From Bacteroidales bacterium (GTDB lineage: Bacteria; Bacteroidota; Bacteroidia; Bacteroidales; WCHB1-69): a DNA stretch of 64,000 nt. How positions within the stretch are numbered: the stretch's first letter is position 1; each line of letters opens with the position of its first letter. The translations under genes were made by a program, and so were the position numbers. The stretch is taken from contig JAFZZK010000035.1 in NCBI GenBank assembly GCA_017615795.1, positions 1-64,000 of the forward strand, written 5' to 3'. Below the pieces are notes generated by a model. That model was not told the DNA's origin. It searched no databases and saw only the letters and a program-made list of their open reading frames with translations. Below, piece after piece: positions 25,158 through 41,687 of this stretch.

Positions 25158-25168
25158 TTTGTTGGGTT

Positions 25169-25184: not shown

Positions 25185-25581
25185 ACATCGCCACGGGCGC
25201 CGCGCTCTACCCCACACTCCCGTATGGGGTTACAAAGTAGTAGCTGCCTTCGGCAGCCGTATACTACGATTTCTTCACAATGCGAGACCTATGGACGCTT
25301 CGCACTATCGTACTCCACGGGTTAGACTGTACTGCCTCCGGCAGCGAGATTACCACGGGCACCGCGCTCTACCCCACACTTGGGTGGGGTTACAAAGTAG
25401 CAGCTGCCTCCGGCAGCCGTATACTACGATTTCTTCACAATGCGAGACCAATGGACGCTTCGCACTATCGTACTCCACGGGTTAGACTGTACTGCCTTCG
25501 GCAGCGAGATCACCTCGGGCACCGCGCTCCACCCCACACTTGGGTGGGGTTACAAAGTAGCAGCTGCCTCCGGCGGCGAGA
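25181..25581 (+). repeat. 160-bp tandem repeat array, about 2.5 units
   Basis: Units begin near 25181, 25341 and 25501; the spacing is 162 bp and then 160 bp. Each full unit carries a CCCCAC...GTGGGG hairpin, a GCTGCCTTCGGCAGC or GCTGCCTCCGGCAGC hairpin and a third ACTGCC(T/C)...GGCAG hairpin. The last unit is cut short before the lolA-like promoter. No gene is seen in 25158-25672; the open frames there follow the repeat. Confidence 0.9.
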
Positions 25582-26705: not shown

Positions 26706-27467
26706 ATGCCCGAAGAGACCAAATCCTTGATGAAAAGCCAGCGCGCATGCGTTATCATCCCCACTTACAACAATGCCAGCACAGTGGTCGACGTAGTCCG
26801 CTCTGTGTTGCACTACTGCGAAGACGTGTTTGTCGTCAATGACGGCTGCACCGATGACACGATGATGGTATTACAGCAGGCAGCCCTGCCCATAAAAATA
26901 TTGGCTTACACACCCAACAAGGGCAAGGGAACGGCGTTGACCACTGGTTTCCGCGAGGCGCTACGCCAAGGCTTCCGCTACGCGCTGACCCTCGATTCCG
27001 ACGGGCAGCACAAAGCAGAGGACATTCCAACGTTCGCCGCCTATATCGCCCACCACGAAGACGCACTGCTCCTCGGCAGTCGCGGGCTCGAACATGAGAA
27101 CATGCCCCGCAAGAACACCTTTGCCAACCGTTTCTCCAATTTCTGGTTTACCGTGCAGACCGGCAAGCGGCTGCCAGACACCCAGACGGGCTTCCGTCTT
27201 TATCCGCTGCACAAGATGGGCAACATGCGCTTGTTCACCTCCCGTTATGAAGCGGAGCTGGAACTGCTCGTCTTCTCCGCCTGGCGCGGCATTGACATCG
27301 TGCCACTCCCCATCCATGTCTATTATCCGCCCGCCGAGGAACGCGTCTCCCATTTCCGTCCCGGCCCCGACTTTGCCCGCATCAGCCTCCTCAACACCTG
27401 CCTCTGCTTCATCGCTATCTTGTACGGCTACCCGTCCATGTTCATCCGGAAAGTCCTCAAGAAGTAG
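26706..27467 (+). CDS. Family 2 glycosyltransferase
   Basis: A 253-residue GT-A fold enzyme. It has ACVIIPTYNNAS near 14-25, VVNDGCTDDT and the LTLDSDGQHKAED segment containing the metal-binding DxD. It resembles dolichyl-phosphate-mannose-synthase-like transferases. In aryl polyene clusters a GT2 gene of this kind commonly accompanies the acyltransferase, probably helping to build the lipid anchor. Donor and acceptor cannot be told from the sequence. Confidence 0.88.
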   Translation: MPEETKSLMKSQRACVIIPTYNNASTVVDVVRSVLHYCEDVFVVNDGCTDDTMMVLQQAALPIKILAYTPNKGKGTALTTGFREALRQGFRYALTLDSDGQHKAEDIPTFAAYIAHHEDALLLGSRGLEHENMPRKNTFANRFSNFWFTVQTGKRLPDTQTGFRLYPLHKMGNMRLFTSRYEAELELLVFSAWRGIDIVPLPIHVYYPPAEERVSHFRPGPDFARISLLNTCLCFIAILYGYPSMFIRKVLKK

Positions 27468-27482
27468 CACACAACCCATAAC

Positions 27483-28415
27483 ATGCCCAAAGCCGACATC
27501 TTAAAAGGATACATTGCCATCTCCGTCTCCATGCTTTTCTGGGGATTCAGTTTCGTATGGAGCAAGCAGCTGCTCAATGCGGGATTCCCTGTGTTCACCA
27601 TCGTCTTCTTCCGGTTGCTTATCGCCTCCGTCATCTTCGTAACCCTGTTCCACTTCCAGCACAAATTAGAAAAGATTGCCAAGAAGGACCGGCGTTCGTT
27701 CTTCATGCTGGCTCTGTTTGAGCCTTTTCTCTACTTCATCGGAGAAGAGTACGGCCTCCAACAAGTGTCGGCGTCATTCGCGGCCGTCATCATCGGGCTG
27801 ATTCCCATTGTGGTGTCGGTCACGATGTATTTCGCCGAGAACGAGAAACTATCCTGGACATTGCTTTTGGGCACCATCGTCTCCATCATCGGCATCGGGG
27901 TGATGACCTTCGGGCCTGACAGCCAGGTGGTCTTCAACCTCAAAGGGTTGTTATGGCTGATGCTGGCACTTATTGCGGCGGGCGGCTACAGTGTCCTGTT
28001 AGCCAGATTAGTCCAGAAATACAGTCCCGTTACGGTCACCACCTACCAAAACCTGTTAGCCTTGCCGTTGTACATCCCGTTTGTATGCATCTTTGACCTC
28101 AGGCACTGGGGCAGCATCAACTGGAGCATCCAATCGCTGGTCAACCTGACCTGCTTGGCCATTCTCTGTTCGGCGGGAGCTTATATGCTCTACTCCTACG
28201 CGGCGAAGCACATTTCCATCACCAAATTGTCGGTATTCACCAACGCCATCCCCATTGTCACCATCTGCGGTGCCGCCCTGTTGGGACAGGAGGCGTTGAC
28301 ACTGCAGAAGTTCGTCGGAATCGCCATCGTCGTGGCAGGGGTCGTGCTTAGCCAGATGCGGCCGTATCGCCAGTTGTTTTGTGTCAACAAGAACAATGCC
28401 ACCCAAAAACAATAG
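27483..28415 (+). CDS. EamA/DMT-family transporter
   Basis: A 310-residue inner-membrane protein with ten predicted helices forming two EamA repeats (about 8-145 and 160-300). The N-terminal FWGFSFVWSKQLL is typical of the drug/metabolite transporter family. It ends the run of same-strand genes that began at 12838, 16 bp after the glycosyltransferase. It may export a pathway product or be an unrelated metabolite transporter; the sequence does not decide. Confidence 0.85.
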   Translation: MPKADILKGYIAISVSMLFWGFSFVWSKQLLNAGFPVFTIVFFRLLIASVIFVTLFHFQHKLEKIAKKDRRSFFMLALFEPFLYFIGEEYGLQQVSASFAAVIIGLIPIVVSVTMYFAENEKLSWTLLLGTIVSIIGIGVMTFGPDSQVVFNLKGLLWLMLALIAAGGYSVLLARLVQKYSPVTVTTYQNLLALPLYIPFVCIFDLRHWGSINWSIQSLVNLTCLAILCSAGAYMLYSYAAKHISITKLSVFTNAIPIVTICGAALLGQEALTLQKFVGIAIVVAGVVLSQMRPYRQLFCVNKNNATQKQ

Positions 28416-28424
28416 TGTTTTTTG

Positions 28425-28432
28425 TATCTTTG
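28425..28432 (+). promoter_or_regulatory. Promoter -7 element of the restriction operon
   Basis: TATCTTTG followed by CCACCT. The predicted transcript starts near 28439, leaving about 20 nt before the ATG at 28458, or about 10 nt before the in-frame GTG at 28449. Confidence 0.7.
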
Positions 28433-28457
28433 CCACCTCATTATATAGGTGACGAAT

Positions 28458-29933
28458 ATGTTGACTCTATCTCAAATAGAACAATACCTTTCCAAAGCCG
28501 CATGGATTCTAAAAGGACCTGTGGATGCGGCTGATTTCAAGGTGTATATCTTCCCCTTATTGTTTTTCAAGAGGATTTCGGATGTTTATGACGAGGAATA
28601 CAACGAGGCCTTGTCGGAAAGCGATGGCGACCACGAATATGCTTCTGGCGCCGAGATGCACCGTTTCATCATTCCAAAAGGTTGCCATTGGAAAGATGTC
28701 AGAGCTGTCACTACCAATGTGGGAAGCGCAATCAAAGGTGCTTTCTCACAAATAGAACAGGCAAATCCTCAATATTTAGCAAACATTTTCGGAGATGCAG
28801 CTTGGACCAACAAAGACAAGCTTTCCGATGAATTGCTAAGTCGGTTGATTGAGCATTATTCGCAATACAATCTGTCGAACTCCAATGTGGAACCTGATGT
28901 TTTAGGTCGTGCCTACGAGTATCTTATCAAGATGTTCGCCGACCAGACCAACAAGAAAGCTGGAGAGTTCTACACACCACGCTCCGTCGTGCATCTAATG
29001 GGCTTGATTGTCAATCCACAACCAAGTGAAACCATCTATGACCCTGCTTGCGGCACCGCTGGAATGCTGCTCGAATGTGTGGACCAAGTGAAGCAGAATG
29101 GCGGTGATTTCCGCACATTGAAACTTTACGGGCAAGAAAAGAACTTGACAACTTCTACCATTGCCCGCATGAATATGTTTCTGCACGGCATTGAGGACTT
29201 TCATATTGAAAGAGGCGACACTTTGCGTGAACCTAAGTTCTTTAAATACGATCAATTGCAACAATTCAATATCGTCATTGCCAATCCACCTTTTTCATTA
29301 AGCAACTGGGGAGCGGATATTTGGGCAGATGATTTATACGGACGCAACATCGCCGGCACACCGCCCAAAGGCAACGGTGATATGGCCTGGGTGCAGCACA
29401 TGATTAAATCCATGAATGAGAAAACAGGGCGTGTGGCGGTGGTATTGCCTCACGGGGCCTTGTTCCGCAAAAACGCCGAAGCCAAAATCCGTTCCGTGCT
29501 GTTGGAAAAAGATTTGTTGGAAGCTGTCATAGGCTTGGGCGAAAACATTTTCTATGGAGCAACACTCTCAGCCTGCATCTTGGTGTTCAGAGCACAAAAA
29601 GAGAAATCCAGAAAGGGCAAATTCCTGTTTATCGATGCCGCCGACCAAGTAAAGAAAGGTCGTGCACAAAACACGTTGGAACCAGAGCATATTGATACTA
29701 TATACAAATGGTATGCTGATTTCAAAGATGTGAAGAATCATGCCAAGGTGGTCGGTCTTGATGAGATTAAAGCCAATAGTTACAATCTAAACATTCCGCT
29801 TTATGTGGAGAAGGAAATGACCGACAATCTGCCGACTTTGGAGGAAGCCAAGGCTCAATTGAAAGTGGCCGTGGAAGAGGCGCACGAGGCGGAGGAACGT
29901 TTTATTCAACTGCTAAAAGAGTTTGCAAAATGA
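28458..29933 (+). CDS. hsdM: Type I restriction-modification methyltransferase HsdM1 (NPPF type)
   Basis: A 491-residue DNA methyltransferase subunit; the GTG at 28449 would give 494. An N-terminal helical HsdM domain (about 1-130) precedes the methylase domain. SAM motif I is DPACGTAGMLLE and catalytic motif IV is NPPF at 29283-29294. The NPPF group in type I systems methylates adenine to m6A. Its stop codon overlaps the start of hsdM2 by 4 bp. It differs clearly from hsdM2 in sequence despite the same layout, so it is not a recent duplicate. Confidence 0.93.
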   Translation: MLTLSQIEQYLSKAAWILKGPVDAADFKVYIFPLLFFKRISDVYDEEYNEALSESDGDHEYASGAEMHRFIIPKGCHWKDVRAVTTNVGSAIKGAFSQIEQANPQYLANIFGDAAWTNKDKLSDELLSRLIEHYSQYNLSNSNVEPDVLGRAYEYLIKMFADQTNKKAGEFYTPRSVVHLMGLIVNPQPSETIYDPACGTAGMLLECVDQVKQNGGDFRTLKLYGQEKNLTTSTIARMNMFLHGIEDFHIERGDTLREPKFFKYDQLQQFNIVIANPPFSLSNWGADIWADDLYGRNIAGTPPKGNGDMAWVQHMIKSMNEKTGRVAVVLPHGALFRKNAEAKIRSVLLEKDLLEAVIGLGENIFYGATLSACILVFRAQKEKSRKGKFLFIDAADQVKKGRAQNTLEPEHIDTIYKWYADFKDVKNHAKVVGLDEIKANSYNLNIPLYVEKEMTDNLPTLEEAKAQLKVAVEEAHEAEERFIQLLKEFAK

Positions 29934-31384
29934 CACAGAAAGAATTGGAATCTTATCTCTGGGGTGCGGCCACCTATCTGCGCGGTTTCATCGATGCCGG
30001 AGACTACAAGCAGTATATCTTCCCGTTGTTGTTTTACAAACGCATCTGCGATGTCTATGACGAAGAATACGAGGATGCCCTTGCCGAAAGCGACGGCGAT
30101 CTGGAATATGCAGCCTTCGATGAAAACCACCGCTTCAAAGTGCCTGCTGAAGCGCATTGGAATAAAGTAAGGCAGGTTACTGTAAATGTGGGGCAAGCCA
30201 TCAGTAAGGCCTTGAATGCCATTCAGAAAGTGAATGCGCAACAATTGCAAGGCATCTTCGGCGATGCCGACTGGACCAACAAGGAACGCCTTTCGGATGC
30301 GATGCTGTGCCAACTCATTGAGCATTTCTCCACCAAGAACCTCAACATCAAGAACGTGCCCAATGACGAGTTAGGTAACGCTTACGAGTTCCTGATCAAG
30401 AAGTTTGCCGACGACAGCGGTCACACGGCAGCCGAGTTCTATACCAACCGCACCGTGGTTCGTTTGATGACGCTTATTGCCGACCCGCTTGAAGGCGACA
30501 GCGTTTATGACCCCACCTGCGGCAGCGGCGGCTTGTTGCTCAACTGCGCCATGATGCTCAAAGACCAAGGCAAGGAATACCGCACCATGCGCCTTTTCGG
30601 GCAAGAAATCAACCTGATCACTTCTGGCATTGCCCGAATGAACATGCTGTTGCACGGCTTCGAAGAGTTCAACATTGTGCGAGGCAACACGTTGAGCAAT
30701 CCTATCTTTATGGAATATGACGAATTGCAGAAGTTCGATATTGTGCTGGCCAATCCTCCCTATTCCATCAAAAGCTGGGACCAGGCTGCCTTCACCGACG
30801 ACCCATACGGACGCAACATCTGGGGCACGCCACCACAGGGCTGCGCCGACTATGCATTCCAGCAGCACATCATGAAAAGCCTGAAACCCGATACGGGGCG
30901 TTGCGTGGTGCTATGGCCACACGGCATCCTTTTCCGTGATGCGGAACGCGACATGCGGCGCAAGATGATTGAAAGCGATTGCGTGGACTGTGTCATTGGC
31001 TTGGGACCGAATCTGTTCTACAACTCCCCCATGGAGGCCTGCCTGCTAATCTGCCGCACACGGAAACCCGAACAGCGGCGAGGCAAAATCCTATTCATCA
31101 ATGCCGTAGATGAAGTGAAACGCGACAAGACCATCAGCATGCTTGAAGAAAGGCATATTGACAAAATTTTCAAGGCATACAAAGCATACAAGGACATCCC
31201 CGGATTTGCCAAAGTGGTGACTAACGAGCAAATTTTGGAGAACGGTGCCACGCTCAATATTTCACAATATGTGTCGCGGTTGGAGGTGAAAGATGATGCG
31301 CCGAAACAGACTTTGGAAGAATTGCTGAATGTGTGGGAAAGAAACAGAGAAAAATTATACACTGAAATCAAGAATCTTATTTGA
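29930..31384 (+). CDS. hsdM: Type I restriction-modification methyltransferase HsdM2 (NPPY type)
   Basis: A 484-residue second HsdM with the same domains as its upstream neighbour. SAM motif I is DPTCGSGGLLLN and catalytic motif IV is NPPY at 30752-30763. In the M1M2S class described by Morgan and colleagues, the NPPY subunit makes m4C and pairs with an NPPF subunit on a single HsdS. The start ATG overlaps the hsdM1 stop by 4 bp, so the two are probably translated in fixed ratio. Its stop codon lies inside the first copy of the roughly 110-bp repeat that brackets the next gene. Confidence 0.93.
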   Translation: MTQKELESYLWGAATYLRGFIDAGDYKQYIFPLLFYKRICDVYDEEYEDALAESDGDLEYAAFDENHRFKVPAEAHWNKVRQVTVNVGQAISKALNAIQKVNAQQLQGIFGDADWTNKERLSDAMLCQLIEHFSTKNLNIKNVPNDELGNAYEFLIKKFADDSGHTAAEFYTNRTVVRLMTLIADPLEGDSVYDPTCGSGGLLLNCAMMLKDQGKEYRTMRLFGQEINLITSGIARMNMLLHGFEEFNIVRGNTLSNPIFMEYDELQKFDIVLANPPYSIKSWDQAAFTDDPYGRNIWGTPPQGCADYAFQQHIMKSLKPDTGRCVVLWPHGILFRDAERDMRRKMIESDCVDCVIGLGPNLFYNSPMEACLLICRTRKPEQRRGKILFINAVDEVKRDKTISMLEERHIDKIFKAYKAYKDIPGFAKVVTNEQILENGATLNISQYVSRLEVKDDAPKQTLEELLNVWERNREKLYTEIKNLI

Positions 31385-31484
31385 CGGTTATTTGATAAAA
31401 GGTCATATATTTGCCAAACGAACACTGATTATCAGCAAGTTGTTATTTGATGCTTATTTGACAAAAAGCGACAAAAGAATAAAG
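31374..31484 (+). repeat. Direct repeat copy A with four TTATTTGA boxes
   Basis: About 110 bp, alignable without gaps to 32953-33063. TTATTTGA occurs at 31377, 31388, 31443 and 31454, that is two pairs of boxes each 11 bp apart. The near-palindrome CTGATTATCAG lies between the pairs. It covers the end of hsdM2 and the spacer before the AlbA-domain gene. Confidence 0.8.
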
Positions 31485-31501
31485 TATAACTAATTTAGGA
31501 T

Positions 31502-32953
31502 ATGGAAATAATAGAATTGAGAAGGCTGGTTGACCGACTTGTTTCGCTATCTAAAGAATCAGAAACGGTGGAATTTAAGGCAAACTTTCACAGCAAGGAA
31601 GAGATTGGAGAGCGCATCTCTGCCTTGTCAAACAGCGCTTGTTTGCAGAATCAACCCTATTCCTATCTTGTCTTTGGCATAGAGAATGATACGCATCAGA
31701 TTATTGGAACGACATTTCGCTCCAAACAGCACATGGTCGGTAATGAAGAGCTAGAGGTTTGGCTCCTTAACAGACTTAATCCAAGAATAGATTTCCAATG
31801 TTTTGATTTCGAGTACCAAGATGGGGTTCAACTCGCTTTATATAAGATTCCTGCCACCGAAAATGTACCGGTAAAATTCCTGAATGTTGGTTATGTACGA
31901 GTCAACAGTTCTACAAGAAAACTGATTGATTACCCCGAAAAAGAGAAACAGATATGGAAGAATGAATTGACGGAAAAATTCATGCTTAATATTGCGCTAA
32001 AGAATTTATCCCTCTCCGATATACCAAAATACTTGAGCACCGAGACCTACTTTGACCTGATGCATTTGCCGTATCCTTCCAATTTGGAAAATGTCGCTCT
32101 CCGATTAAAAGAGGAAAACATCATCAACGAATACGAAGGGCAATATGCCATTACCAATCTTGGCGCGCTCCTGTTTGCCAAGAATCTAAAAGATTTCTCC
32201 ACTTTGACCAGAAAAGCCATCAGGGTCATCAAATACAAAGGCAACAACAAGGTGGAAACCGAAAGGGATATTATTGGCAGCAAAGGGTATGCCGTCGGTT
32301 TTACTGGTCTTTTGGAATGGATAAACGGGCAATTGCCAGCCAACGAGGAGATTGGAAAATCGTTAAGGAAAGATGTGCGCATGTATCCCGAAATCGCCAT
32401 TCGTGAACTTGTCGCCAACTCGATTATTCACCAAGATTTTTCTGTCAAAGGTTTTCCAACCATCGAAATCTATGATGATCGTATTGACATCTCCAATCCC
32501 GGACAGCCCATCATTCATTCTGACCGATTCATTGACGAATACGGATCGCGAAACGAGCGTTTGGCCGACATTATGAGAAGGATGGGGTTTTGTGAGGAAA
32601 AGGGCAGCGGCTTGGACAAAACCATTTTTTATGTGGAACTATATCAACTGCCACCTATCAAAATCACCATTCAGGAGAATAGGACCATTGTTACTCTTTT
32701 TGCCTATAAAGCCTTGAACAATATGGATAAATTGGAACGACAAAGCGCCTGCTATCAACATGCATGTCTGAAATATGTTTCCAACGAAAAAATGACCAAT
32801 CAAACGTTCCGTGACAGGCTTGGCATTGAAGAGCACAATTCAGCATTGGCCTCACGCATTATAAAGGACACGTTGGAGGCAAAACTAATCAAGGAAGAGA
32901 ACCCTGAGAATCAATCTCGAAAATACCGGAAATACATCCCTTGGTGGGCTTAA
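31502..32953 (+). CDS. Schlafen/AlbA-type protein with GHKL ATPase domain
   Basis: A 483-residue protein. An N-terminal AlbA_2/Schlafen-like domain (about 10-130, ESETVEFKANF...YLVFGIEND) is followed by a GHKL ATPase-like domain (about 270-400). That domain shows the N box RELVANSIIHQD, G1 SNPGQP and G2 EKGSGLDK. A C-terminal winged-helix-like part follows. Proteins of this type are frequent inside type I restriction loci in other bacteria. Their role is not settled; regulation or a second defence layer is usual speculation. It is bracketed by two copies of a roughly 110-bp repeat and is more AT-rich than the hsdM genes. Confidence 0.82.
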   Translation: MEIIELRRLVDRLVSLSKESETVEFKANFHSKEEIGERISALSNSACLQNQPYSYLVFGIENDTHQIIGTTFRSKQHMVGNEELEVWLLNRLNPRIDFQCFDFEYQDGVQLALYKIPATENVPVKFLNVGYVRVNSSTRKLIDYPEKEKQIWKNELTEKFMLNIALKNLSLSDIPKYLSTETYFDLMHLPYPSNLENVALRLKEENIINEYEGQYAITNLGALLFAKNLKDFSTLTRKAIRVIKYKGNNKVETERDIIGSKGYAVGFTGLLEWINGQLPANEEIGKSLRKDVRMYPEIAIRELVANSIIHQDFSVKGFPTIEIYDDRIDISNPGQPIIHSDRFIDEYGSRNERLADIMRRMGFCEEKGSGLDKTIFYVELYQLPPIKITIQENRTIVTLFAYKALNNMDKLERQSACYQHACLKYVSNEKMTNQTFRDRLGIEEHNSALASRIIKDTLEAKLIKEENPENQSRKYRKYIPWWA

Positions 32954-33063
32954 TCTTATTTGATGGTTATTTGACAAAACGCCCTGTTTTTATAAAATAG
33001 ATACTGATTATCAACGAGTTGTTATTTGATGGTTATTTGATAGAACGCACAAAACGAACAAGA
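32953..33063 (+). repeat. Direct repeat copy B with four TTATTTGA boxes
   Basis: Second copy of the repeat at 31374-31484, exactly 1,579 bp downstream. TTATTTGA boxes lie at 32956, 32967, 33022 and 33033, with identical spacing (0, 11, 66, 77). It overlaps the last base of the AlbA-domain gene and precedes hsdS. Confidence 0.8.
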
Positions 33064-33076
33064 TTGACTGAACAAG

Positions 33077-34228
33077 ATGAACGAACTAAACATAGATAAA
33101 ACCCTCTGGAAGAAATACAGGTTTGACGAGGTCTGCCGACAGGTGAACGAGGCCACAAAAGACCCTACTGCTGAAGGCTTGGACCATGTGATTGGACTTG
33201 AACATATTGAGCCCAACAACCTGCATATTACCCATTGGGACACTTTGGAGAAAGAAACCACCTTTACGCGCAAGTTCAAGAAAGGGCAAGTGCTGTTTGG
33301 ACGGCGGCGTGCCTACCAACGGAAAGTGGCGTATGCCGAGTTTGATGGCATTTGTTCCGGCGACATTCTTGTGTTTGAGGCTATTGAAAAGGTGATGTTG
33401 CCCGAATTGCTGCCATTCCTGATACAAAGTGAAGGTTTCTTCCAGAAAGCGTTGGCCACCTCTGCGGGTTCTTTGTCCCCTCGCACCAAGTTCAAGGAAC
33501 TGGCCGACTATGAATTCCTCCTCCCGCCCAAAGCCGAGCAGAAACGCATGGCCGAGCTGCTCTGGGCCGCCGATGAGGTGGTGGAGAAGGAGAAAAGGGA
33601 GTTACAAGGTTTGGAGAGATTATATTATAGTACAATATCAGATGTGTTTCATAATCAACAAAAACATTGCAAATTAGGATCATTGTGTGAAATCAAAAGC
33701 GGATTTGCGTTCCCACTAAAATATCAAGGCAAGAAAGATTTGTCAATACCATTTTTCAAGGTTGCAGACATGAACCATCCAAACAATAGATTTGAGATGA
33801 AGGAAAGCGATAATTATGTGGATGACAGTATTTTAAAAACAATAAAAGGACAAACTTATCCTGCTGGTTCACTCGTCTTTCCAAAAATTGGTGCAACAAT
33901 CAATACCGACAAAAAAAGGATGTTATCAATGAATTCGGTTGTTGACAATAATATAATGGTGCTAATACCAAACAAAAAACAATTAGATTCTCATTTCTTG
34001 TTCTACTTCTTCAATACATTTAAACTATCTGACATAATAAACACCGGTGCAGTTCCTACTATTTCAGCAGAAACTGTTCGCAATATCCAAATACCCGATT
34101 TAGATATAGCAGAACAAAATATTATAGCCAACCAAATTGATACAATCAGGTTGGCATTATCACAACAAGAACAACTCATAGAACAATCGCGACAAATAAA
34201 GCAGGAATTAATCAATAAAATAATGTAA
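33077..34228 (+). CDS. hsdS: Type I restriction-modification specificity subunit HsdS
   Basis: A 383-residue subunit that reads the two halves of the target. Target-recognition domain 1 is about 1-170, a coiled-coil spacer about 170-190 (AEQKRMAELLWAADEVVEKEKRELQGLERL), domain 2 about 195-350, and a C-terminal coiled coil follows. Base composition changes sharply near 33610. The first half resembles the hsdM and hsdR genes; the second half is AT-rich and continues that way into the next two genes. This suggests that domain 2 was swapped in by recombination, a common way for type I systems to change specificity. It starts 14 bp after repeat copy B. Confidence 0.92.
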   Translation: MNELNIDKTLWKKYRFDEVCRQVNEATKDPTAEGLDHVIGLEHIEPNNLHITHWDTLEKETTFTRKFKKGQVLFGRRRAYQRKVAYAEFDGICSGDILVFEAIEKVMLPELLPFLIQSEGFFQKALATSAGSLSPRTKFKELADYEFLLPPKAEQKRMAELLWAADEVVEKEKRELQGLERLYYSTISDVFHNQQKHCKLGSLCEIKSGFAFPLKYQGKKDLSIPFFKVADMNHPNNRFEMKESDNYVDDSILKTIKGQTYPAGSLVFPKIGATINTDKKRMLSMNSVVDNNIMVLIPNKKQLDSHFLFYFFNTFKLSDIINTGAVPTISAETVRNIQIPDLDIAEQNIIANQIDTIRLALSQQEQLIEQSRQIKQELINKIM

Positions 34229-34231
34229 AAT

Positions 34232-36616
34232 ATGAAAAGATATCGTGATATTAGAGATAGATTAATAGAAATTCAAAGAGGGAGCAACGAACCGGATTTA
34301 TTCCCTATTCTCAAACAACTATTCATAACAAAGCAATTCAACAATGTTGAAATAACCCATGGTCCGAACGAATATGGGAAAGATTTGGTGTTTAGTAAAT
34401 ATGATGCGGATTTAAATGATAATAACTGGTACGCTGTAGTTGTAAAGAACAAAAATGCAGAGATGAAAGATTTCGAAGACCAGGGAGAAATCATTCGACA
34501 AATCCAATTGTCATTTAAGCATCCATATACAGACAGTAAAGGAGTCGAACATTATATAAATAAGGTAATAGTTGTTATTAATGGAACTATTACAAATAAT
34601 GCAAAAGAGATTCTAAAAACAGATATTCCAGCTCATCAATTAAACAATGTATACCTTTGGAATTATCAAAGATTAGAAGAAGAAATCAGCAATAACATAA
34701 AGGATTTGTTTTTATCTGGCGAAACTGGTTCGCAAGAAGACTTTATCATTTCAACATATAAGAAAACACTAACAGATAAACTAATAAAACTTGATAATGC
34801 ACAAGAATTGTTTTCGGGCCTCAGTATAACTCAAATAAACGATATTTTTGTTAATGTCAGAACGGCTAACCAAAGGTATGAAACTGAGAAGCAAAGGTAT
34901 CAAACTAATACGAATGCAACCTATAAAGAAGAAATAGATGATTCCATTTCAATCATCAATTCAAATAAAAATACAATTATTCGTGGCATTCCAACTTCTG
35001 GAAAAACTCTATTGCTCAAAAGAATCGGAATAAATGCATTGAATAACTACAAAGATATTGGTGTCTTTTGGTTTAGATTTAGAGACATTCAAATAGATGG
35101 TTTTAATTTGCAAGAAGAAGTTTATAAACAATTCAATGAATTATCTGGCAACAATGAGCTTAATCATGATTATTTTAAAAAATACTTGTTCTTATTTGAC
35201 GCTTTAGATGAAATAACAGATAACGAAAAAAGAATTGCAATTATCAATCAATTACAAAAACAAGTTTCTTCATTTAATAACGGCTATTTAATCATTTCTG
35301 GAAGAAACATCGAGCTGTTTAAAGATATTTCATTATTTGATCCTTCAAATTATGAAACTGTGGATTTATTGCCTTTTGACATAGGACAAGCATTAAAATT
35401 GGTCAAGAAAATCATTCCAGACAACAAAGAAAAAAACAATCACTTTATTGCTGCCATCAAAAAACAACAGTTGTCAAATAGTTTGACGAGAACTCCGATG
35501 GCTTTGACACTAATGGCCATCATGTATAAAGATGATGCCATTGACCTAAAGGAATTGCCAGCAAACATTACAGAATTATATAATAAATTTAGTGATTATT
35601 ACTTAGACAAATGGGATGCCTCGAAAGGTATTACTTCTCAATATAAATACGAGGAATATAAACATATTGTAGGCTTTATTGCTCATTATCTTCATTCTAA
35701 TCATATACATGAAATCTTTTCACAAGACCTGAAGCACTATTTAGAAACGATAAAAGCAACCCACTCAACTTTTGAAGAACTCCAGGATATCGACAATTAC
35801 TTAAATGGATTAAAATGCAGAAACACACTTCTTCATTATGACCCAGATAGAGATACTTTCTATTTTAATAGTGGCGCTTTCCAAGAATACTTCACAAGCA
35901 TCTATTTTGATGATTCTAACGAGGATGAATTAATTGGTAACTTATACCAAGAATGGTGGCAAAATGTTATCATCTTTTACAACGGTAAAAACCAAAAAAG
36001 ATCAGTGTTTATTGAAAAAGCACTCATGTCTATTCCTATAGACTCAGTTTCTATGTTTTATCATTTGCAAATCATATCTAAGAGTTTGCAAGCAGCTCGC
36101 CTTGTTCCAAATAACATTGCTGAGAAAGCCATAAAAAATATGATTTACACTTTTGATGGGTTTTACAATTCATTATTATCAACAGCAACAAACAATCCAA
36201 TAGCATATCAATGGACCACGCTTGATATGATATTACAGTGTCGAAATTTATTTAATGATTTGTTTGATTCTAAACATATTAACACAGATATTGTTTCAAA
36301 TAATGCCATTGACATTTTGACTGATAACAATAGTCGATTTTCGGATGTCACCAAATACTGTTTAGCATATTACTTGGCCCACAAAACAAGAGATGCAGAG
36401 TACTTTTCAATGTTTTTATCAACACAAGACTTGAATACACGTTGGGATAGAATTGTACTTAGAGATGTTGAATACATGAAGATAAAAAACAGTTTGCCAG
36501 AAAAAACATATCGTAGAATAAAACGAAAACAAGAGTATAACAAGATTTATATTGATCAACAATTTAAAGAACCTGCCATATTGCATTTGTCAGATGGTAC
36601 AAAACTTGAAAAATAA
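34232..36616 (+). CDS. Nuclease-like NACHT NTPase (candidate defence STAND protein)
   Basis: A 794-residue protein in strongly AT-rich sequence. The N-terminus (about 1-140) resembles an Mrr/PD-(D/E)XK nuclease fold, with E20, the GKD segment around D51 and K72 in VVVK; the usual Gln or Glu before that lysine is replaced by Val, so activity is uncertain. A NACHT module follows, with Walker A GIPTSGKT at 252-259 and Walker B FLFDALDE around D323-E327. The rest (about 450-794) is helical and likely a sensor. This layout is that of bacterial NLR-like (bNACHT/Avs-type) anti-phage proteins. It begins 3 bp after hsdS. Confidence 0.8.
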   Translation: MKRYRDIRDRLIEIQRGSNEPDLFPILKQLFITKQFNNVEITHGPNEYGKDLVFSKYDADLNDNNWYAVVVKNKNAEMKDFEDQGEIIRQIQLSFKHPYTDSKGVEHYINKVIVVINGTITNNAKEILKTDIPAHQLNNVYLWNYQRLEEEISNNIKDLFLSGETGSQEDFIISTYKKTLTDKLIKLDNAQELFSGLSITQINDIFVNVRTANQRYETEKQRYQTNTNATYKEEIDDSISIINSNKNTIIRGIPTSGKTLLLKRIGINALNNYKDIGVFWFRFRDIQIDGFNLQEEVYKQFNELSGNNELNHDYFKKYLFLFDALDEITDNEKRIAIINQLQKQVSSFNNGYLIISGRNIELFKDISLFDPSNYETVDLLPFDIGQALKLVKKIIPDNKEKNNHFIAAIKKQQLSNSLTRTPMALTLMAIMYKDDAIDLKELPANITELYNKFSDYYLDKWDASKGITSQYKYEEYKHIVGFIAHYLHSNHIHEIFSQDLKHYLETIKATHSTFEELQDIDNYLNGLKCRNTLLHYDPDRDTFYFNSGAFQEYFTSIYFDDSNEDELIGNLYQEWWQNVIIFYNGKNQKRSVFIEKALMSIPIDSVSMFYHLQIISKSLQAARLVPNNIAEKAIKNMIYTFDGFYNSLLSTATNNPIAYQWTTLDMILQCRNLFNDLFDSKHINTDIVSNNAIDILTDNNSRFSDVTKYCLAYYLAHKTRDAEYFSMFLSTQDLNTRWDRIVLRDVEYMKIKNSLPEKTYRRIKRKQEYNKIYIDQQFKEPAILHLSDGTKLEK

Positions 36617-36620
36617 GTAC

Positions 36621-36655
36621 ATCATGTCCTTCAACGAAATAAACGCAGTGGAAAA
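36621..36655 (+). repeat. 35-bp exact direct repeat, copy 1 (hsdR start)
   Basis: Identical over 35 bases to 37615-37649, the true hsdR start region including its ATG. Copies are 994 bp apart and bracket the nucleotidyltransferase-TIR gene. Confidence 0.95.
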
Positions 36656-36677
36656 ACAAACAAATAAATATGTTTAA
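36624..36677 (+). pseudogene. Vestigial hsdR start (17-codon remnant)
   Basis: The ATG and first eleven codons equal or nearly equal the hsdR start (MSFNEINAVE), after which the frame diverges and stops at 36677. It lies directly after the NACHT gene, where hsdR would be expected if the next gene had not been inserted. Confidence 0.8.
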
Positions 36678-36690
36678 TCTATAAAACACT

Positions 36691-37605
36691 ATGAGTATGG
36701 AAAAAAGAGAAGATGTTAGAACGATACATTTAAAAGAACACATTGAAAAGATTGCACAAATAGATAATGTATTAGAAATCTATTTATTCGGTTCTCGTGC
36801 CTTTAAAACTATGTGCAAAACTTCTGATATTGATATTCTTATTTACTATAGAGATGGGATAGAAAACGATGAATTAAAAAACATTAGAGATGCTGAACAC
36901 GCCTTAGATCTTTTCAAAACACAGGATAAACATTATGCTGAAAGTTTTTGCAATGGAAGTCACATTTTGAATGATAATTTGATTCAATCTCTTCACGCCA
37001 AACTCTTGTGGTCAAAAGAAAAAGGGTATAACGACGAATTTCTTAACAGTTATGGCAAGATTGATGTTTTACGAAATATAGATTTTAAGATGTCTTATTG
37101 CTGTACTTATTCGTCAGAAGAAAAAAAGTTTTATAGCACATACGGGTATGATGCTATTTTTGTAATAATGCCATTCCGTGACGAATGTGAACCTGTTTAT
37201 AATACCATTAAAGATGTATTTGGTAAACACAATCTCAAAGTAATAAGGGCTTCCGATAAAGAATTTAAGGATAATCTTTGGGATAATGTACAGATTTATT
37301 TAGATTGTTGTAGAGCTGCAGTTTCAATATTCCATTATGACGAAAAAAAGGAGCGTTGTTTTGACCGTTTGAAAAAACTATTTACGACTCCTAATAAACA
37401 AGTATTCAACCCAAATGTGGCTATAGAAACAGGGTATATGATGGCAAAACAAGAGGAAAAAGATATTTGCATATTAAAAGATAAGCGATTGGAAAAACTA
37501 CCAACAGATTTTCTCGGGAAACTATATAAAGAATACGACATCAACAATCTTGATGACCTCAAAGAACAATTGAACGATTGGATTAGAGATCATTTAAACA
37601 TATAA
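36691..37605 (+). CDS. Nucleotidyltransferase fused to TIR/deoxyribosyltransferase-like domain
   Basis: A 304-residue AT-rich gene product. Residues about 15-110 form a minimal nucleotidyltransferase, with G34-S35-R36 and D46-x-D48 (LFGSRAFKTMCKTSDIDIL). Residues about 150-304 belong to the TIR-like/nucleoside-2-deoxyribosyltransferase-like superfamily, recognisable from DAIFVIMPFRDE and FNPNVAIETGYMMAK, with E246 as a candidate catalytic residue. I do not recognise this fusion as a named system. A plausible idea is a defence effector in which the second domain cleaves NAD or a nucleotide and the first modifies a target, but that is inference. It lies between two 35-bp copies of the hsdR start. 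An alternative start is ATG 36697. Confidence 0.75.
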   Translation: MSMEKREDVRTIHLKEHIEKIAQIDNVLEIYLFGSRAFKTMCKTSDIDILIYYRDGIENDELKNIRDAEHALDLFKTQDKHYAESFCNGSHILNDNLIQSLHAKLLWSKEKGYNDEFLNSYGKIDVLRNIDFKMSYCCTYSSEEKKFYSTYGYDAIFVIMPFRDECEPVYNTIKDVFGKHNLKVIRASDKEFKDNLWDNVQIYLDCCRAAVSIFHYDEKKERCFDRLKKLFTTPNKQVFNPNVAIETGYMMAKQEEKDICILKDKRLEKLPTDFLGKLYKEYDINNLDDLKEQLNDWIRDHLNI

Positions 37606-37607
37606 CA

Positions 37608-37618
37608 ACTGATTATCA
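37608..37618 (+). promoter_or_regulatory. ACTGATTATCA motif before hsdR
   Basis: The same 11-mer occurs at 31424 (before the AlbA-domain gene) and 33003 (before hsdS). Three copies in front of three genes of one operon suggest a shared regulatory site or the edge of a recombining segment. Confidence 0.5.
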
Positions 37619-37649
37619 TGTCCTTCAACGAAATAAACGCAGTGGAAAA
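37615..37649 (+). repeat. 35-bp exact direct repeat, copy 2 (hsdR start)
   Basis: Right-hand copy of 36621-36655; it covers the real hsdR ATG at 37618 and continues into the intact gene. Confidence 0.95.
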
Positions 37650-40599
37650 CTTCGTCATCCATACGATGACTGGGGTGAACTTGAACGACCTCTCCCCCGG
37701 GAGAGGGGAGCATAATGTGGTTTGTGAGCCACAAGTTCCCTACGGGGCGCAGTGGGAGTACCTACCCGCCACGGAGCTGCCGCGCGAGATTACCGAGGTG
37801 ATGGTGGAAACGGAGGTGAAAAACGCCCTCGTCCGCCTCAACCCTGAGATTGCTGCACAACCCGAACGCGCCGATGAGGTCATCTTCAAACTGCGTTCCA
37901 TTCTGCTGTCGGTACGCAGCACCGGCCTTGTGCGCGCCAATGAGGAGTTTGCCGAATGGCTCAAGGGCAACAAGACCATGCCCTTCGGCAAAAATTACGC
38001 CCATGTGCCGGTCCGCCTCATCGATTTCGAGCATATCGCCAACAACAAATTCCAGTTGGTCAACCAATTCAGCATCCGCAACCGCGAAACCAAACGTCCC
38101 GACATCGTGATGTTTGTCAACGGCTTCCCCTTGGTGGTGGGCGAAACCAAAACACCTGTCCGTCCATCTGTGTCGTGGTTGGATGCCGCCTCCGACATCC
38201 ACGACGGCTACGAAAACAGCGTGCCGGAACTCTTTGTGCCCAATGTGTTCAGCTTCGCCACCGAAGGACGCGAGTTGTTCTATGGCGCCGTGCGCACGCC
38301 GCTGGAGTTTTGGTCGGCATGGCGGCTCAATGAGGGCTGCGAAGACTCGGAAATGCCTGGTTTGGAAAATGTTTCCGCCGAGATGCGGCAGTTGTTGTCA
38401 CCCAAAACCTTGCTTGACATTCTATACAACTACACCACCTACACCACCAACAAAAGCCGTCAGCGCATCAAGGTGGTGTGCCGCTACCAACAATACGAAG
38501 GCGCCAACCGCATCGTGGAACGCGTGTTGGAAAACAAAATCAAACGCGGCCTGATATGGCATTTCCAAGGCTCGGGCAAGTCGCTGCTGATGCTCTTTGC
38601 CGCACAGAAGATGCGCCGTATGCCCGAACTGAAAAGTCCCACGGTGATGATTGTGGTGGACCGCATCGACTTGGACTCGCAGACGCAGAATGTCTTCAAG
38701 GAAGCGCCCAATGTGATGCCCACAGAGGACATCGACACGCTGAACAAGTTCTTGGAGAACGATTCTCGATATATTATCATCACCACCATCTTCAAGTTCA
38801 AGGACGCCAAGCCTAACATCAACCGCCGCGACAACATCATCGTGATGGTGGACGAGGCGCACCGCACGCAGGAAGGCGACCTCGGTCAGCGTATGCGTAC
38901 CGCCTTGCCCAATGCTTTCTTCTTCGGTCTTACGGGAACACCCATCAACAAATCGGAGCACAACACCTTCTGGACTTTCGGCGCACAAGAGGACAAAGGC
39001 GGATACATGAGCCGCTACTCCTTCGAGGACGCGCTGCGCGACAACACCATCCTGCCGCTGCATTTCGAGCCGCGCCTGTTGGACATCCACATCGACCGCG
39101 ACAAAGTAGATGAGGAATTTGAGCGCATCTCCAATGAATTGGATGAAGACGCCAAAATCACCCTCAGCAGCAAGGCCGCCAAGATGCTGGAGTTTTTGAA
39201 GTCGCCCGAACGCATACAGATTGTCTGCAAGGACATTGCCGAACACTATCGCGACAAGGTGGAGCCACAAGGCTTCAAAGCCATGATTGTCACACCCGAC
39301 CGTGAAGCCTGCCATCTCTACAAGATGGAGCTGAACAACTACTTCCCTGATTCCGCTTCGGCGGTGGTCATCTCCACCTCTGGCAAAGGCGAGGACGAGC
39401 TGAAACGGCTCTACAGCCTCACCAAAGACGAGCAGGAAAAGGTGATCGAGAAGTTCAACAAACCCGATTCGGAACTGAAATTCTTGATTGTCACTGCCAA
39501 ACTGCTCACGGGCTTCGACTCGCCCATATTGCAGACCATGTATTTGGACAAATCGTTGAAAGACCACACTTTGTTACAGGCCATCTGCCGCACCAACCGC
39601 AAGTTCCCGAATAAGACTTTCGGTCGCATTGTGGATTACTTCGGTGTGTTTGATGATGCCGCCAAGGCTTTGGAATTCGACGAGGATGTGATGAAGAAAG
39701 TCATCACCAACCTCAACGATTTGATTAACGAACTGCCGCAAGCCATGGCCGACACGCTGTCGCATTTCAAAGGCGTGGACCGCACCATTGACGGCTTCGA
39801 CGGTTTGCAAGCCGCACAGGAAGCCATCAACACCAACGAAAAGCGCGATGCCTTTGCCGCCGACTATCGCCGTCTGTCCAACATTTGGGAATCGCTTTCC
39901 CCCGACCCTGCTTTGGAACCTTATCGCGTAGATTACAAATGGCTTTCCAATGTATATCAATCCGTTAAACCCTCTGGTCCCGATGCTTTGGGCAAACTGA
40001 TTTGGCTCTCCTTGGGCGCACAAACCAAGAAAATCATGTACGACAACATCCATGTGGCAGGCATCCATACTGACATGGAGGAGGTGATATTGGATGAAAC
40101 TATGGTTTCTGCGTTGATGGGCAACAAGGATATGAAGGCTGCCAAACGAATGGAGCGTGAGCTTATCAAGCGTTTCAAGAAACATGCCGACAAGCCGAAA
40201 TTCATCGAATTGAGCAAACGCCTGGAAGCCCTGCGTGACAAAGCCGAACAAGGACTGATTTCGAGCATCGAGTTCATCAAGGAACTTTGTCAGATTGCCC
40301 GTGAAACCTTACAGGCCGAGAAACAGGAAGCCGAGGTGGAAGTCCGCAAAACCGGCAAAGAAGCTTTAACGGAGTTATTCTTGGAACTTCGCACCGAAGA
40401 CACACCTGCCGTAGTGGGCCGCATTGTCGCCGATATCGATAGCATCGTGAAGGTGGTCCGTTTCCCTGGCTGGCAAACCACCAATGCAGGCGAACGTGAA
40501 GTGCAAAAGGCATTGCGCAAGACCCTGTTGAAGTACAAACTGCACAAGGAAGAAGCGTTGTTCAACAAGGCGTATATGTATATTAGGGAATATTACTAA
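37618..40599 (+). CDS. hsdR: Type I restriction endonuclease subunit HsdR
   Basis: A 993-residue translocase-nuclease. The N-terminal PD-(D/E)XK nuclease is readable as RPDIVMF...LVVGETK near 160-180. The motor has Walker A FQGSGKS and the DEAH box VMVDEAHRTQ, then TGTPINK and the QAICRTNR helicase motif, and a C-terminal helical domain binds the methyltransferase. Length and order are normal. Near the start, an 18-bp palindrome (37689-37706) codes DLSPGRG, which looks like a small inserted element. Composition returns to the GC-richer style of hsdM, so it belongs with them rather than with the two genes just upstream. Confidence 0.94.
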   Translation: MSFNEINAVENFVIHTMTGVNLNDLSPGRGEHNVVCEPQVPYGAQWEYLPATELPREITEVMVETEVKNALVRLNPEIAAQPERADEVIFKLRSILLSVRSTGLVRANEEFAEWLKGNKTMPFGKNYAHVPVRLIDFEHIANNKFQLVNQFSIRNRETKRPDIVMFVNGFPLVVGETKTPVRPSVSWLDAASDIHDGYENSVPELFVPNVFSFATEGRELFYGAVRTPLEFWSAWRLNEGCEDSEMPGLENVSAEMRQLLSPKTLLDILYNYTTYTTNKSRQRIKVVCRYQQYEGANRIVERVLENKIKRGLIWHFQGSGKSLLMLFAAQKMRRMPELKSPTVMIVVDRIDLDSQTQNVFKEAPNVMPTEDIDTLNKFLENDSRYIIITTIFKFKDAKPNINRRDNIIVMVDEAHRTQEGDLGQRMRTALPNAFFFGLTGTPINKSEHNTFWTFGAQEDKGGYMSRYSFEDALRDNTILPLHFEPRLLDIHIDRDKVDEEFERISNELDEDAKITLSSKAAKMLEFLKSPERIQIVCKDIAEHYRDKVEPQGFKAMIVTPDREACHLYKMELNNYFPDSASAVVISTSGKGEDELKRLYSLTKDEQEKVIEKFNKPDSELKFLIVTAKLLTGFDSPILQTMYLDKSLKDHTLLQAICRTNRKFPNKTFGRIVDYFGVFDDAAKALEFDEDVMKKVITNLNDLINELPQAMADTLSHFKGVDRTIDGFDGLQAAQEAINTNEKRDAFAADYRRLSNIWESLSPDPALEPYRVDYKWLSNVYQSVKPSGPDALGKLIWLSLGAQTKKIMYDNIHVAGIHTDMEEVILDETMVSALMGNKDMKAAKRMERELIKRFKKHADKPKFIELSKRLEALRDKAEQGLISSIEFIKELCQIARETLQAEKQEAEVEVRKTGKEALTELFLELRTEDTPAVVGRIVADIDSIVKVVRFPGWQTTNAGEREVQKALRKTLLKYKLHKEEALFNKAYMYIREYY
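37689..37706. repeat. Palindrome inside the hsdR coding region
   Basis: CCTCTCCC-CC-GGGAGAGG, a perfect 8-bp stem with a 2-base loop, read in frame as part of DLSPGRG around residues 24-30 of HsdR. Confidence 0.8.
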
Positions 40600-40639
40600 A
40601 CGATGCAGCAATCCGTTCAAAAGTTTATTGTTTTTTGAG

Positions 40640-40647
40640 TATTTTTG
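40640..40647 (+). promoter_or_regulatory. ruvX-def promoter -7 element
   Basis: TATTTTTG followed by CGGCCT; about 30 nt leader to the ATG at 40678. It rules against the in-frame ATG at 40645, which lies within the -7 element. Confidence 0.75.
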
Positions 40648-40677
40648 CGGCCTCAAAAAGAAGGTTTGATTTACGAT

Positions 40678-41130
40678 ATGGGACGCATTTTAGCCATAGA
40701 TTACGGACAAAAGCGGGTCGGTTTCGCCGTCACAGACGAGCTGCAGATCTGCGCCAACGCATTAGACACCATCCCCGTGGCACAGGCATTCGATTTCCTG
40801 AAAGCTTATCTACAACGTGAGAAGGTCGACGTCGTGGTAGTGGGCGAGCCCCGCAAGCTCGACAACACCCCCTCTGATTCGGCGCGTTTCGTGGAGCCCT
40901 TCGTCAACCGCCTGCGCAAGGAGCTGCCAAACATCTCCCCCGGCACCACCCTCGCCCGCATGGACGAACGCTTCACCTCCCGTATTGCTTTCCAGACCAT
41001 GATCGACATAGGCTTGAGCAAAAAGGAGCGCCAGAACAAGGCTATGGTGGACAAAATCAGCGCGACCATCATCCTGCAGTCCTATTTAGAGCAACAAGAC
41101 ATGATTAAACAAAGAGAAAACGACTTATGA
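40678..41130 (+). CDS. ruvX: Pre-16S rRNA nuclease RuvX/YqgF
   Basis: A 150-residue RNase H-fold nuclease family member that trims the 16S rRNA 5' end (also described as a Holliday junction resolvase homologue). The start MGRILAIDYGQKRVGFAVTD holds the first catalytic Asp, VVVVGEPRKLDNTPSDSA the central loop and DKISATIILQSYL the C-terminal Asp. The chosen ATG gives the family N-terminus. Its stop overlaps the def start in ATGA, so the two are coupled. Confidence 0.92.
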   Translation: MGRILAIDYGQKRVGFAVTDELQICANALDTIPVAQAFDFLKAYLQREKVDVVVVGEPRKLDNTPSDSARFVEPFVNRLRKELPNISPGTTLARMDERFTSRIAFQTMIDIGLSKKERQNKAMVDKISATIILQSYLEQQDMIKQRENDL

Positions 41131-41681: not shown

Positions 41682-41687
41682 GCCGCC

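What the first reader, a model, noticed from the sequence alone, without database searches (positions are those of the whole stretch)
31374..37617. Three-gene defence island nested inside the restriction operon
An AlbA/Schlafen ATPase, a nuclease-NACHT protein and a nucleotidyltransferase-TIR protein are inserted between hsdM2, hsdS and hsdR, all on one strand with short gaps. Campylobacter hsd loci with intervening rlo genes are a precedent, but this particular set is not one I know. It could be a layered system in which restriction and abortive infection share transcription.
Basis: partly seen in the sequence, partly recalled or inferred. Interest (0 to 1): 0.8.

Follow-up and report, generated by a model that had tools for sequence, protein, structure and literature searches.

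The report
Swappable defence cassettes in restriction operon
A bacterial DNA-cutting defence operon carries extra, probably anti-virus genes in fixed gaps between its own genes, and copied scraps of the operon left between the cargo genes suggest that these were added one at a time, so the three genes look like exchangeable parts and not one new system.

Summary
The genes are there, on one strand: hsdM1-hsdM2-[SLFN_AlbA_2/HATPase]-hsdS-[Mrr-like?-NACHT]-[NTase-TIR]-hsdR. They are not a three-gene system. Among 82 loci with this hsdR lineage (some cut by contig ends), only the window shows all three. The NACHT gene recurs in one relative without the NTase-TIR, and the NTase-TIR in another without the NACHT, each in the same hsdS-hsdR slot. 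In the 12 near loci scored (window included), this slot is always occupied, and four hold pairs matching PARIS, Septu, SIR2-HerA and Hachiman. Between cargo modules lie relics of the hsdR 5' end. Here a perfect 35-nt repeat flanks the NTase-TIR gene. An hsdR-start anchor finds such relics in 8 of 75 loci (six strong), against 0 of 75 for each of four internal anchors. I read the locus as a mobile restriction platform whose slots gain cassettes stepwise at the hsdR start, probably by recombination anchored in hsdR. Embedding between hsdS and hsdR is already published (PMC12255303, PMC11411939, passages read); my searches showed no description of the relics. Function of the three genes is inferred only.

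The parts
28374..40676 (+). whole hsd operon as inserted between the EamA gene and ruvX; stands in place of 69 nt of the empty site
   Evidence: relative G015 (L165) has gtA-EamA-ruvX-def contiguous; flanks align up to 28373 and from 40677
28425..28433 (+). TATCTTTGC, match to the Bacteroidales -7 box (TAnnTTTG, recalled) just before hsdM1; candidate operon promoter
   Evidence: consensus recalled, function not tested
28449..29933 (+). hsdM1, N6-adenine methylase subunit, motif NPPF intact
   Evidence: PF02384 5.3e-103, HsdM_N 5.6e-19; motifs
29930..31384 (+). hsdM2, second methylase subunit, motif NPPY intact
   Evidence: PF02384 4e-85, HsdM_N 3.7e-22; motifs
31380..31413 (+). promoter-like TTTG-N22-TANNTTTG match in the hsdM2-AlbA gap
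   Evidence: 6 matches in the whole window, both strands, against 1.28 expected; one of the three on + strand outside other genes' flanks is this one
31373..31482 (+). repeat copy 1 (110 nt) flanking the AlbA gene on the left
   Evidence: D2, 77% to copy 2
31502..32953 (+). cassette 1 (hsdM2-hsdS slot): SLFN_AlbA_2 + HATPase_c_4 protein
   Evidence: PF04326 6e-16, PF13749 3.5e-17
32952..33061 (+). repeat copy 2; just after the AlbA stop it reads TCTTATTTGA like the hsdM2 3' end
   Evidence: D2, sequence
33077..34228 (+). hsdS specificity subunit
   Evidence: PF01420 1.4e-22; PADLOC Specificity_I 3.9e-105
34232..36616 (+). cassette 2 (hsdS-hsdR slot): NACHT/STAND ATPase with a weakly Mrr-like N-terminus; 31% GC
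   Evidence: 88% identical copy in L045, same slot
36621..36655 (+). relic of the hsdR start (ATC + first 32 nt of hsdR); by reading, it now opens a 17-codon mini-ORF
   Evidence: perfect 35-nt repeat D6; sequence
36656..36690 (+). possible decayed copy of an hsdS 3' end following the relic
   Evidence: weak here: 16, 63, 17 and 13 of 1000 shuffles reach the score in four comparisons; clear in L040 and L041
36691..37605 (+). cassette 3 (hsdS-hsdR slot, hsdR side): MNT-like nucleotidyltransferase fused to a CAP12/PCTIR-type TIR domain
   Evidence: PF18765 1.4e-9, PF01909 3.8e-9, PF10137 3.1e-10; 72-73% copy in G015/L046
37615..37649 (+). intact copy of the repeated hsdR start
   Evidence: D6
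37618..40599 (+). hsdR restriction subunit
   Evidence: TIGR00348 4.4e-159, above cut-off; HSDR_N 5e-31

Best explanation
A mobile type I restriction-modification operon (M1 M2 S R) works as a platform with two cargo slots, hsdM2-hsdS and hsdS-hsdR. The three inner genes are separate cassettes, probably defence genes, acquired in separate events. In the hsdS-hsdR slot cargo is stacked stepwise: the NACHT cassette once lay directly before hsdR; then a piece carrying the NTase-TIR gene and a new hsdR start joined 32 nt inside hsdR, leaving the first 32 nt as a relic. The likely route (inferred) is recombination with DNA of another hsd locus, homologous on the hsdR side and illegitimate on the other. 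Function (inferred): restriction is the first line; the NACHT protein and the TIR protein act as independent second lines, probably of abortive-infection type, expressed by read-through from the hsd promoter.
For: (a) Backbone constant, cargo variable: hsdR is 95-97% identical in the seven closest loci (L040-L046), while the S-R content differs. Over 82 loci, 54 of 64 scorable S-R slots hold cargo, 13 of 58 M2-S, 12 of 26 M1-M2; 155 of 159 cargo ORFs are on the operon strand, in 81 clusters. All 12 near loci scored have a filled S-R slot. (b) Cargo includes known defence pairs: PARIS (L040), Septu (L042), SIR2-HerA (L048), Hachiman (L052) by PADLOC profiles. (c) Independent assortment: NACHT in 2 of 40 genus genomes, NTase-TIR in 2 of 40, only the window's genome in both, all four copies in this slot. 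L044 and L049 share a cargo at 94.4% while hsdR is 87.7% and hsdS 40.5%. (d) Relics: hsdR-start anchor 8 of 75 loci, four internal hsdR anchors 0 of 75 each. L100 has two relics and two modules in alternation (the first relic seen by eye). In four of the seven relics placed the relic starts within 10 nt of a cargo stop. In L040 and L041 it runs straight into an hsdS 3' end. The window's 29-nt hsdR start (up to 3 mismatches) has 7 hits in 104 family genomes: four true starts, three relics, all in this locus. (e) In 10 of 11 near loci measured hsdR has 0.525-0.56 GC and the S-R cargo 0.29-0.35, except two L045 ORFs at 0.55 and 0.46. (f) Flush junctions: both gaps 20 nt or less in 35 of 53 S-R slots with + strand cargo. 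(g) The whole operon moves: empty site in G015.
Against: Relics are seen in only 8 of 75 loci, two of them weak (L055, L075). The hsdS-end part of the window's own linker is weak. No donor locus for the NTase-TIR piece was found, so the recombination route is inferred. The near loci are metagenome-assembled by their titles, one genome per species. L050 holds two IS200-like genes instead of defence genes, L051 a protein without Pfam match. In L052 hsdR itself has 0.41 GC. hsdR is not uniformly conserved: +101..+160 is 0.68 identical. Relics in L040 and L055 lie 164 and 269 nt after the last cargo stop, not flush. No expression or phage data.
Confidence: 0.85

Rival explanations
1. One integrated three-gene (or seven-gene) defence system in which restriction triggers the NACHT and TIR proteins.
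For: Same strand, short gaps, no + strand terminator-like site; precedent of a whole cluster protecting better than the embedded pair alone against several phages (PMC11411939, passages).
Against: The set is seen in 1 of 82 loci; NACHT and NTase-TIR each recur without the other; separate repeats mark separate insertions.
Confidence: 0.06
2. Cargo is placed by a site-specific recombinase or transposon that recognises the hsdR start; the relic is a target-site duplication.
For: Relics share end points in two groups: 32 nt (window, L040; L041 near it) and 42 nt (L042, L045), the latter followed by the same palindrome-rich sequence.
Against: End points differ between groups and lineages (about 22, 32, 42, at least 119 nt); no integrase among the cargo families that I saw (one search lists 25 of 65 families, IS200-like Y1_Tnp among them); in L040 and L041 the relic joins an hsdS 3' end, which a target-site duplication does not predict.
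Confidence: 0.12
3. The repeated hsdR start is a functional leader (mini-ORF or coupling element) kept by selection, not a scar.
For: It starts 7 nt after a cargo stop and opens a 17-codon ORF in the window (sequence).
Against: Not found in 67 of 75 loci; length and frame vary; L040 has TTG for the ATG and L041 has an in-frame stop at codon 10 (sequences); in L100 it runs for 119 nt or more.
Confidence: 0.05
4. Assembly artefact: strains with different cassettes were merged at the shared hsdR start.
For: Near loci are metagenome assemblies by their titles; the window's repeat is perfect.
Against: Relics in L040, L041 and L100 differ in letters from their hsdR and continue into other sequence; they occur in separately made assemblies and in another phylum (L100, Verrucomicrobiales).
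Confidence: 0.04

Closest known systems
DarTG2 between hsdS and hsdR in enteropathogenic E. coli (RRDM island; PMC12255303, passages read)
   Same: A complete second defence system embedded in the hsdS-hsdR interval of a type I operon; the authors call the site a potential recombination hotspot, from four further genomes with another gene pair there.
   Different: Other cargo; the passages I read describe no relics of hsdR or hsdS and no stacking.
TgvAB inside the type I cluster of VPI-2 (PMC11411939, passages read)
   Same: Embedded genes with anti-phage activity of their own; the paper cites C. jejuni RloF between hsdR and hsdS.
   Different: GmrSD-like pair, not NACHT or TIR. GmrSD-type genes do occur here in the M1-M2 slot of two Bacteroidota relatives scanned (L062, L074).
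Putative defence candidates (PDC) found by guilt-by-embedding (Payne et al. 2024, preprint not held; known from PMC12988326 passages)
   Same: The three genes give weak PADLOC hits to PDC-S50, PDC-S60, PDC-S09 and PDC-S35.
   Different: E-values 2.9e-5 to 1.6e-9 over parts of the proteins; none is a clear member. The AlbA protein's best PADLOC hit is a short-Argonaute-associated profile (1.2e-12, partial).
bNACHT/STAND anti-phage proteins (recalled)
   Same: NACHT-like P-loop and Walker B motifs, N-terminal candidate effector.
   Different: Sub-threshold domains; no tested relative found here; catalytic motif of the nuclease part not canonical.
Type VII toxin-antitoxin HEPN-MNT (recalled) and Pycsar/CBASS TIR effectors
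   Same: MNT-like NTase with GSR...DID motif; CAP12/PCTIR-type TIR.
   Different: Here NTase and TIR are one chain; no separate HEPN or cyclase gene was recognised in the operon.

Membership tests
Type I restriction-modification system | hsdM, hsdS, hsdR in one operon with intact domain signatures | tested here: met
   N6_Mtase twice, Methylase_S, HSDR_N + SWI2/SNF2; TIGR00348 531 bits against 285. TIGR00497 hsdM is just below cut-off for both (231 and 218 against 243)
Type I restriction-modification system | active sequence-specific methylation and restriction | not testable with these tools
   needs methylome and plating data
Defence genes embedded between hsdS and hsdR | cargo between hsdS and hsdR on the operon strand, including defence systems | tested here: met
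   window and 53 further of 64 scorable slots hold cargo; named systems in four near loci
Single three-gene defence system | the genes co-occur in other genomes | tested here: not met
   1 of 82 loci; each S-R gene recurs without the other in 40 genus genomes
bNACHT / STAND | NACHT ATPase domain above curated cut-off | tested here: inconclusive
   22.2 bits against 26.7; P-loop and Walker B motifs present; 8 of 10 tblastn relatives annotated NACHT
Mrr-type nuclease | Mrr_cat domain above cut-off, D...[QE]xK motif (recalled) | tested here: not met
   18.6 bits against 21; D51 present but V-V-K at the expected motif (my reading of the sequence printed)
CAP12/PCTIR-type TIR protein | PF10137 above cut-off | tested here: met
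   40.5 bits against 24.7
Pycsar or CBASS | cyclic-nucleotide synthase beside the effector | tested here: inconclusive
   no cyclase family above cut-off in the seven operon proteins, but the NTase domain itself matches Adenyl_cycl_N below cut-off (19.7 against 27)
Type VII MntA antitoxin | NF047752 above cut-off (60 bits) | tested here: not met
   25.8 bits over part of the domain
Transposon or integron cassettes | encoded recombinase and conserved ends or attC sites | tested here: inconclusive
   no integrase among cargo families seen (25 of 65 families listed), IS200-like genes in L050; attC sites not searched

The most novel reading that the evidence does not exclude
The 3' end of hsdS and the 5' end of hsdR act as reusable homology arms: each captured cassette brings a new hsdR start, the old one stays as a relic, and relic linkers of the form hsdR-start|hsdS-end create a second slot. 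Type I loci would thus be cassette arrays of whole defence systems, growing towards hsdR without an integrase.
Probability: 0.4. Interest if true: 0.75.

Novelty: new variant of a known kind. Interest (0 to 1): 0.58.

Why it matters
Embedding of defence genes in restriction operons is known; in the papers that I could search I found no account of how the genes get there. Relics of hsdR and hsdS give a fossil record: they suggest the order of arrival, the side on which cargo is added and a candidate mechanism. They can be searched for in any genome and used to cut embedded genes into true functional units before testing, so that neighbours are not mistaken for one system.

Tried and rejected
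Rejected: the three-gene system (assortment and repeats). Rejected as general: target-site duplication by one element (relic lengths differ). Led nowhere: viral contigs for NACHT and NTase-TIR (none; for hsdR: one locus, L120); full-length NTase-TIR in 393 order and 395 phylum genomes (only the window's own full length, else partial matches; G015's copy was not in those samples' hits and came); NACHT in 395 phylum genomes (46 with a match, all partial besides the own copy); solved structures (2rff for the NTase, 1.8e-4, and 3lmm for the AlbA protein, 2.8e-6, were the only hits better than 0.03); Rfam on 27000-42000 (0); sigma-70 scan (30 against 26.4 expected, and that consensus is not the Bacteroidales one, recalled). 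A look for a decayed linker in L046 was borderline (42 against shuffle maximum 40 with L040, 38 against 37 with L041; with the window's linker 34 of 500 shuffles reach the score), so I do not count it. A simple pattern for the palindromes gave 0 matches in the window.

Dropped before counts: 7 of 82 loci with less than 400 nt upstream, slots whose flanking hsd gene was not recognised, and ORFs under 90 aa; four clusters with minus-strand members only before choosing 77 representatives. In A2 (78 members) L045's NACHT was replaced by the window's, and the window's AlbA added. PADLOC and Pfam over A2 return only the 25 commonest of 449 and 65 families, so I give no fraction of cargo that is defence. 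One search (threshold 40) gave 6 of 54 for the hsdR start, 2 of 54 for the next 120 nt (L045, L100), 0 of 54 for each of eight anchors further in, 2 of 54 for the hsdS end (L040, L093), and one stray at hsdS -600 (L073).
Full report
What is there. The window holds a type I operon with two hsdM genes, one hsdS and one hsdR, all on the + strand, and three further genes inside it. The AlbA/Schlafen-type protein lies between hsdM2 and hsdS; the NACHT protein and the NTase-TIR fusion lie between hsdS and hsdR. Domain support differs: SLFN_AlbA_2, HATPase_c_4, NTase and TIR pass Pfam's cut-offs; NACHT and Mrr_cat do not. The NACHT reading is kept because P-loop and Walker B motifs are present and 8 of 10 plasmid relatives are annotated so. 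Both S-R cargo genes have 31% GC beside 53% in hsdR.

Two repeats that the finding does not mention. A perfect 35-nt direct repeat lies at 36621-36655 and 37615-37649: the first 32 nt of hsdR plus three nt before it, flanking the NTase-TIR gene. A 110-nt repeat of 77% identity lies at 31373-31482 and 32952-33061, flanking the AlbA gene; its second copy reads TCTTATTTGA, like the hsdM2 3' end, just after the AlbA stop.

The same locus elsewhere. Any hsdR homologue was found in 98 of 148 related genomes, nine of them by the high scores of this lineage (66% identity or more, two partial). A scan of named genomes kept 80 loci of 160 confirmed, and viral contigs gave one more. With the window that makes 82 loci. 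Where hsdR is 95-97% identical (L040-L046) the inner genes differ: L040 PARIS-like pair plus a protease-like gene; L041 RhuM-cluster gene and an OLD/GajA-like fragment with unknown genes; L042 AlbA-type gene and Septu; L044 RhuM and a 645-aa ATPase of the L049 cluster; L045 AbiE genes, the NACHT gene (88%) and DUF559; L046 a shortened RhuM-cluster ORF, a 536-aa ATPase and the NTase-TIR gene (72-73%). L043's slot was not scored. A little further off are L048 SIR2-HerA and L052 Hachiman. Over 82 loci, 54 of 64 scorable S-R slots, 13 of 58 M2-S slots and 12 of 26 M1-M2 slots hold cargo; 155 of 159 cargo ORFs are on the operon strand, in 81 clusters. Cargo is often flush: both gaps 20 nt or less in 35 of 53 S-R slots with + strand cargo. 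Not all cargo is defence: L050 holds two IS200-like genes, L051 a protein without Pfam match.

The three genes assort. In 40 genus genomes the NACHT gene is in two (the window's and G017) and the NTase-TIR gene in two (the window's and G015), each time in this slot. Relatives of the AlbA protein are common (28 of 40 genomes; best outside the window 39% identity). hsdS of the window and of L046 are 88% identical in DNA and both loci have NTase-TIR next to hsdR, but the gene between is NACHT in one and an ATPase in the other. L044 and L049 share a 645-aa cargo at 94.4% although hsdR is 87.7% and hsdS 40.5% identical. So cargo moves apart from its neighbours.

Relics as a record of insertion. With the first 120 nt of each hsdR as anchor, a second copy upstream is found in 8 of 75 loci; four other hsdR anchors give 0 of 75 each. 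Six are strong (window, L040, L041, L042, L045, L100); L055 (22 nt) and L075 (25 nt, starting at nt 13) are weak. In the window, L041, L042 and L045 the relic starts within 10 nt of the preceding cargo stop, as expected if that cargo once lay directly before hsdR; in L100, L040 and L055 the distances are 29, 164 and 269 nt. In L045 the NACHT gene is followed by a 42-nt relic, then palindromic sequence, DUF559 and hsdR; in the window by a 32-nt relic, then NTase-TIR and hsdR. The same NACHT-hsdR junction was thus apparently opened by different later cargo. In L100 (Verrucomicrobiales) hsdR starts and cargo modules alternate: relic, module, relic, module, hsdR (the first relic seen by eye). In L040 and L041 the relic joins an hsdS 3' end; in the window this part is weak (16, 63, 17 and 13 of 1000 shuffles reach the score in four comparisons). 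In 104 family genomes the window's 29-nt hsdR start has 7 hits, four true starts and three relics, all in this locus; the reversed control has none in the genomes listed.

Mechanism. Supported by the comparisons: modular content, separate insertions, hsdR-start relics. Inferred: the incoming piece ends in hsdR on one side (homologous) and joins on the other side by short or no homology inside the first codons of hsdR. This resembles homology-facilitated illegitimate recombination (known to me; only a search listing was seen). Around the slot, identity falls from 0.85 (hsdR +1..+60) to 0.51 (-60..-1) among 14 near loci, though it is only 0.68 at hsdR +101..+160; and from 0.73 (last 45 nt of hsdS) to 0.51 after its stop in 12. 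The hsdS 3' end and hsdR 5' end could thus serve as arms. The whole operon is mobile too: G015 has the window's flanking genes side by side without it (contig C8) and carries its own hsd locus on contig C4.

Function. Restriction is supported by intact domains only. A STAND-type sensor for the NACHT gene and NAD-directed toxicity for the TIR domain follow from family knowledge (recalled), not from tests. The fused MNT-like NTase could hold the TIR domain inactive, as MNT proteins do to HEPN toxins (recalled), or make a signal (it has a sub-threshold match to Adenyl_cycl_N); this is speculation. No + strand terminator-like site was found in 28200-40800 (7 sites, all on the - strand, against 13 expected), but a Bacteroidales-type promoter match lies before the AlbA gene.

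Known and new. Embedding between hsdS and hsdR is published for DarTG2, with the site called a potential hotspot (PMC12255303, passages), and embedding in a type I cluster for TgvAB (PMC11411939, passages). Guilt-by-embedding is an established search method (PMC12988326, passages; the original preprint is not held). My searches of the paper library showed, in listings and the passages read, no description of hsdR or hsdS relics; most subscription papers and all preprints are outside that library.

Noticed in passing
window 28449-31384: Two different hsdM genes with intact motifs (51-53% alike in tblastn) and one hsdS; an M1-M2 pair was recognised in 26 loci. A heterodimeric M1-M2-S methylase is possible.
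   Followed up: partly
L062, L074, L079, L083, L092, L093 between hsdM1 and hsdM2: A gene of about 600-700 aa, GmrSD-type in the two scanned (L062, L074), occupies a third cargo slot.
   Followed up: partly
L051, L053: Gene order is permuted: hsdM1 and hsdM2 follow hsdR.
   Followed up: no
L055:6103-7590: S-R cargo with a deaminase domain (dCMP/AID-APOBEC-like) and a HATPase_c_4 domain in one protein.
   Followed up: no
window 37690-37709 (about hsdR codons 25-31): The window's HsdR has extra residues against most of the aligned orthologues, encoded by a palindromic CTCTCCCCCGGGAGAG stretch; similar palindromes fill the relic linkers of L042 and L045.
   Followed up: partly
window 24400-25574: IS200-like Y1 transposase (24708-25157) beside a 160-nt repeat array (2.4 copies) and 18-nt repeats.
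   Followed up: partly
window 44037-51845: 2602-aa Ig-like/PKD repeat protein with a Por secretion tail.
   Followed up: no
L038 (G088): hsdM1 start fused to hsdM2 end, as if by a deletion; an hsdR relative matching from residue 346 follows.
   Followed up: no
plasmids H1-H10: Ten enterobacterial plasmid records hold a stretch 35-37% identical to the TIR half of the NTase-TIR protein, annotated hypothetical in nine.
   Followed up: no
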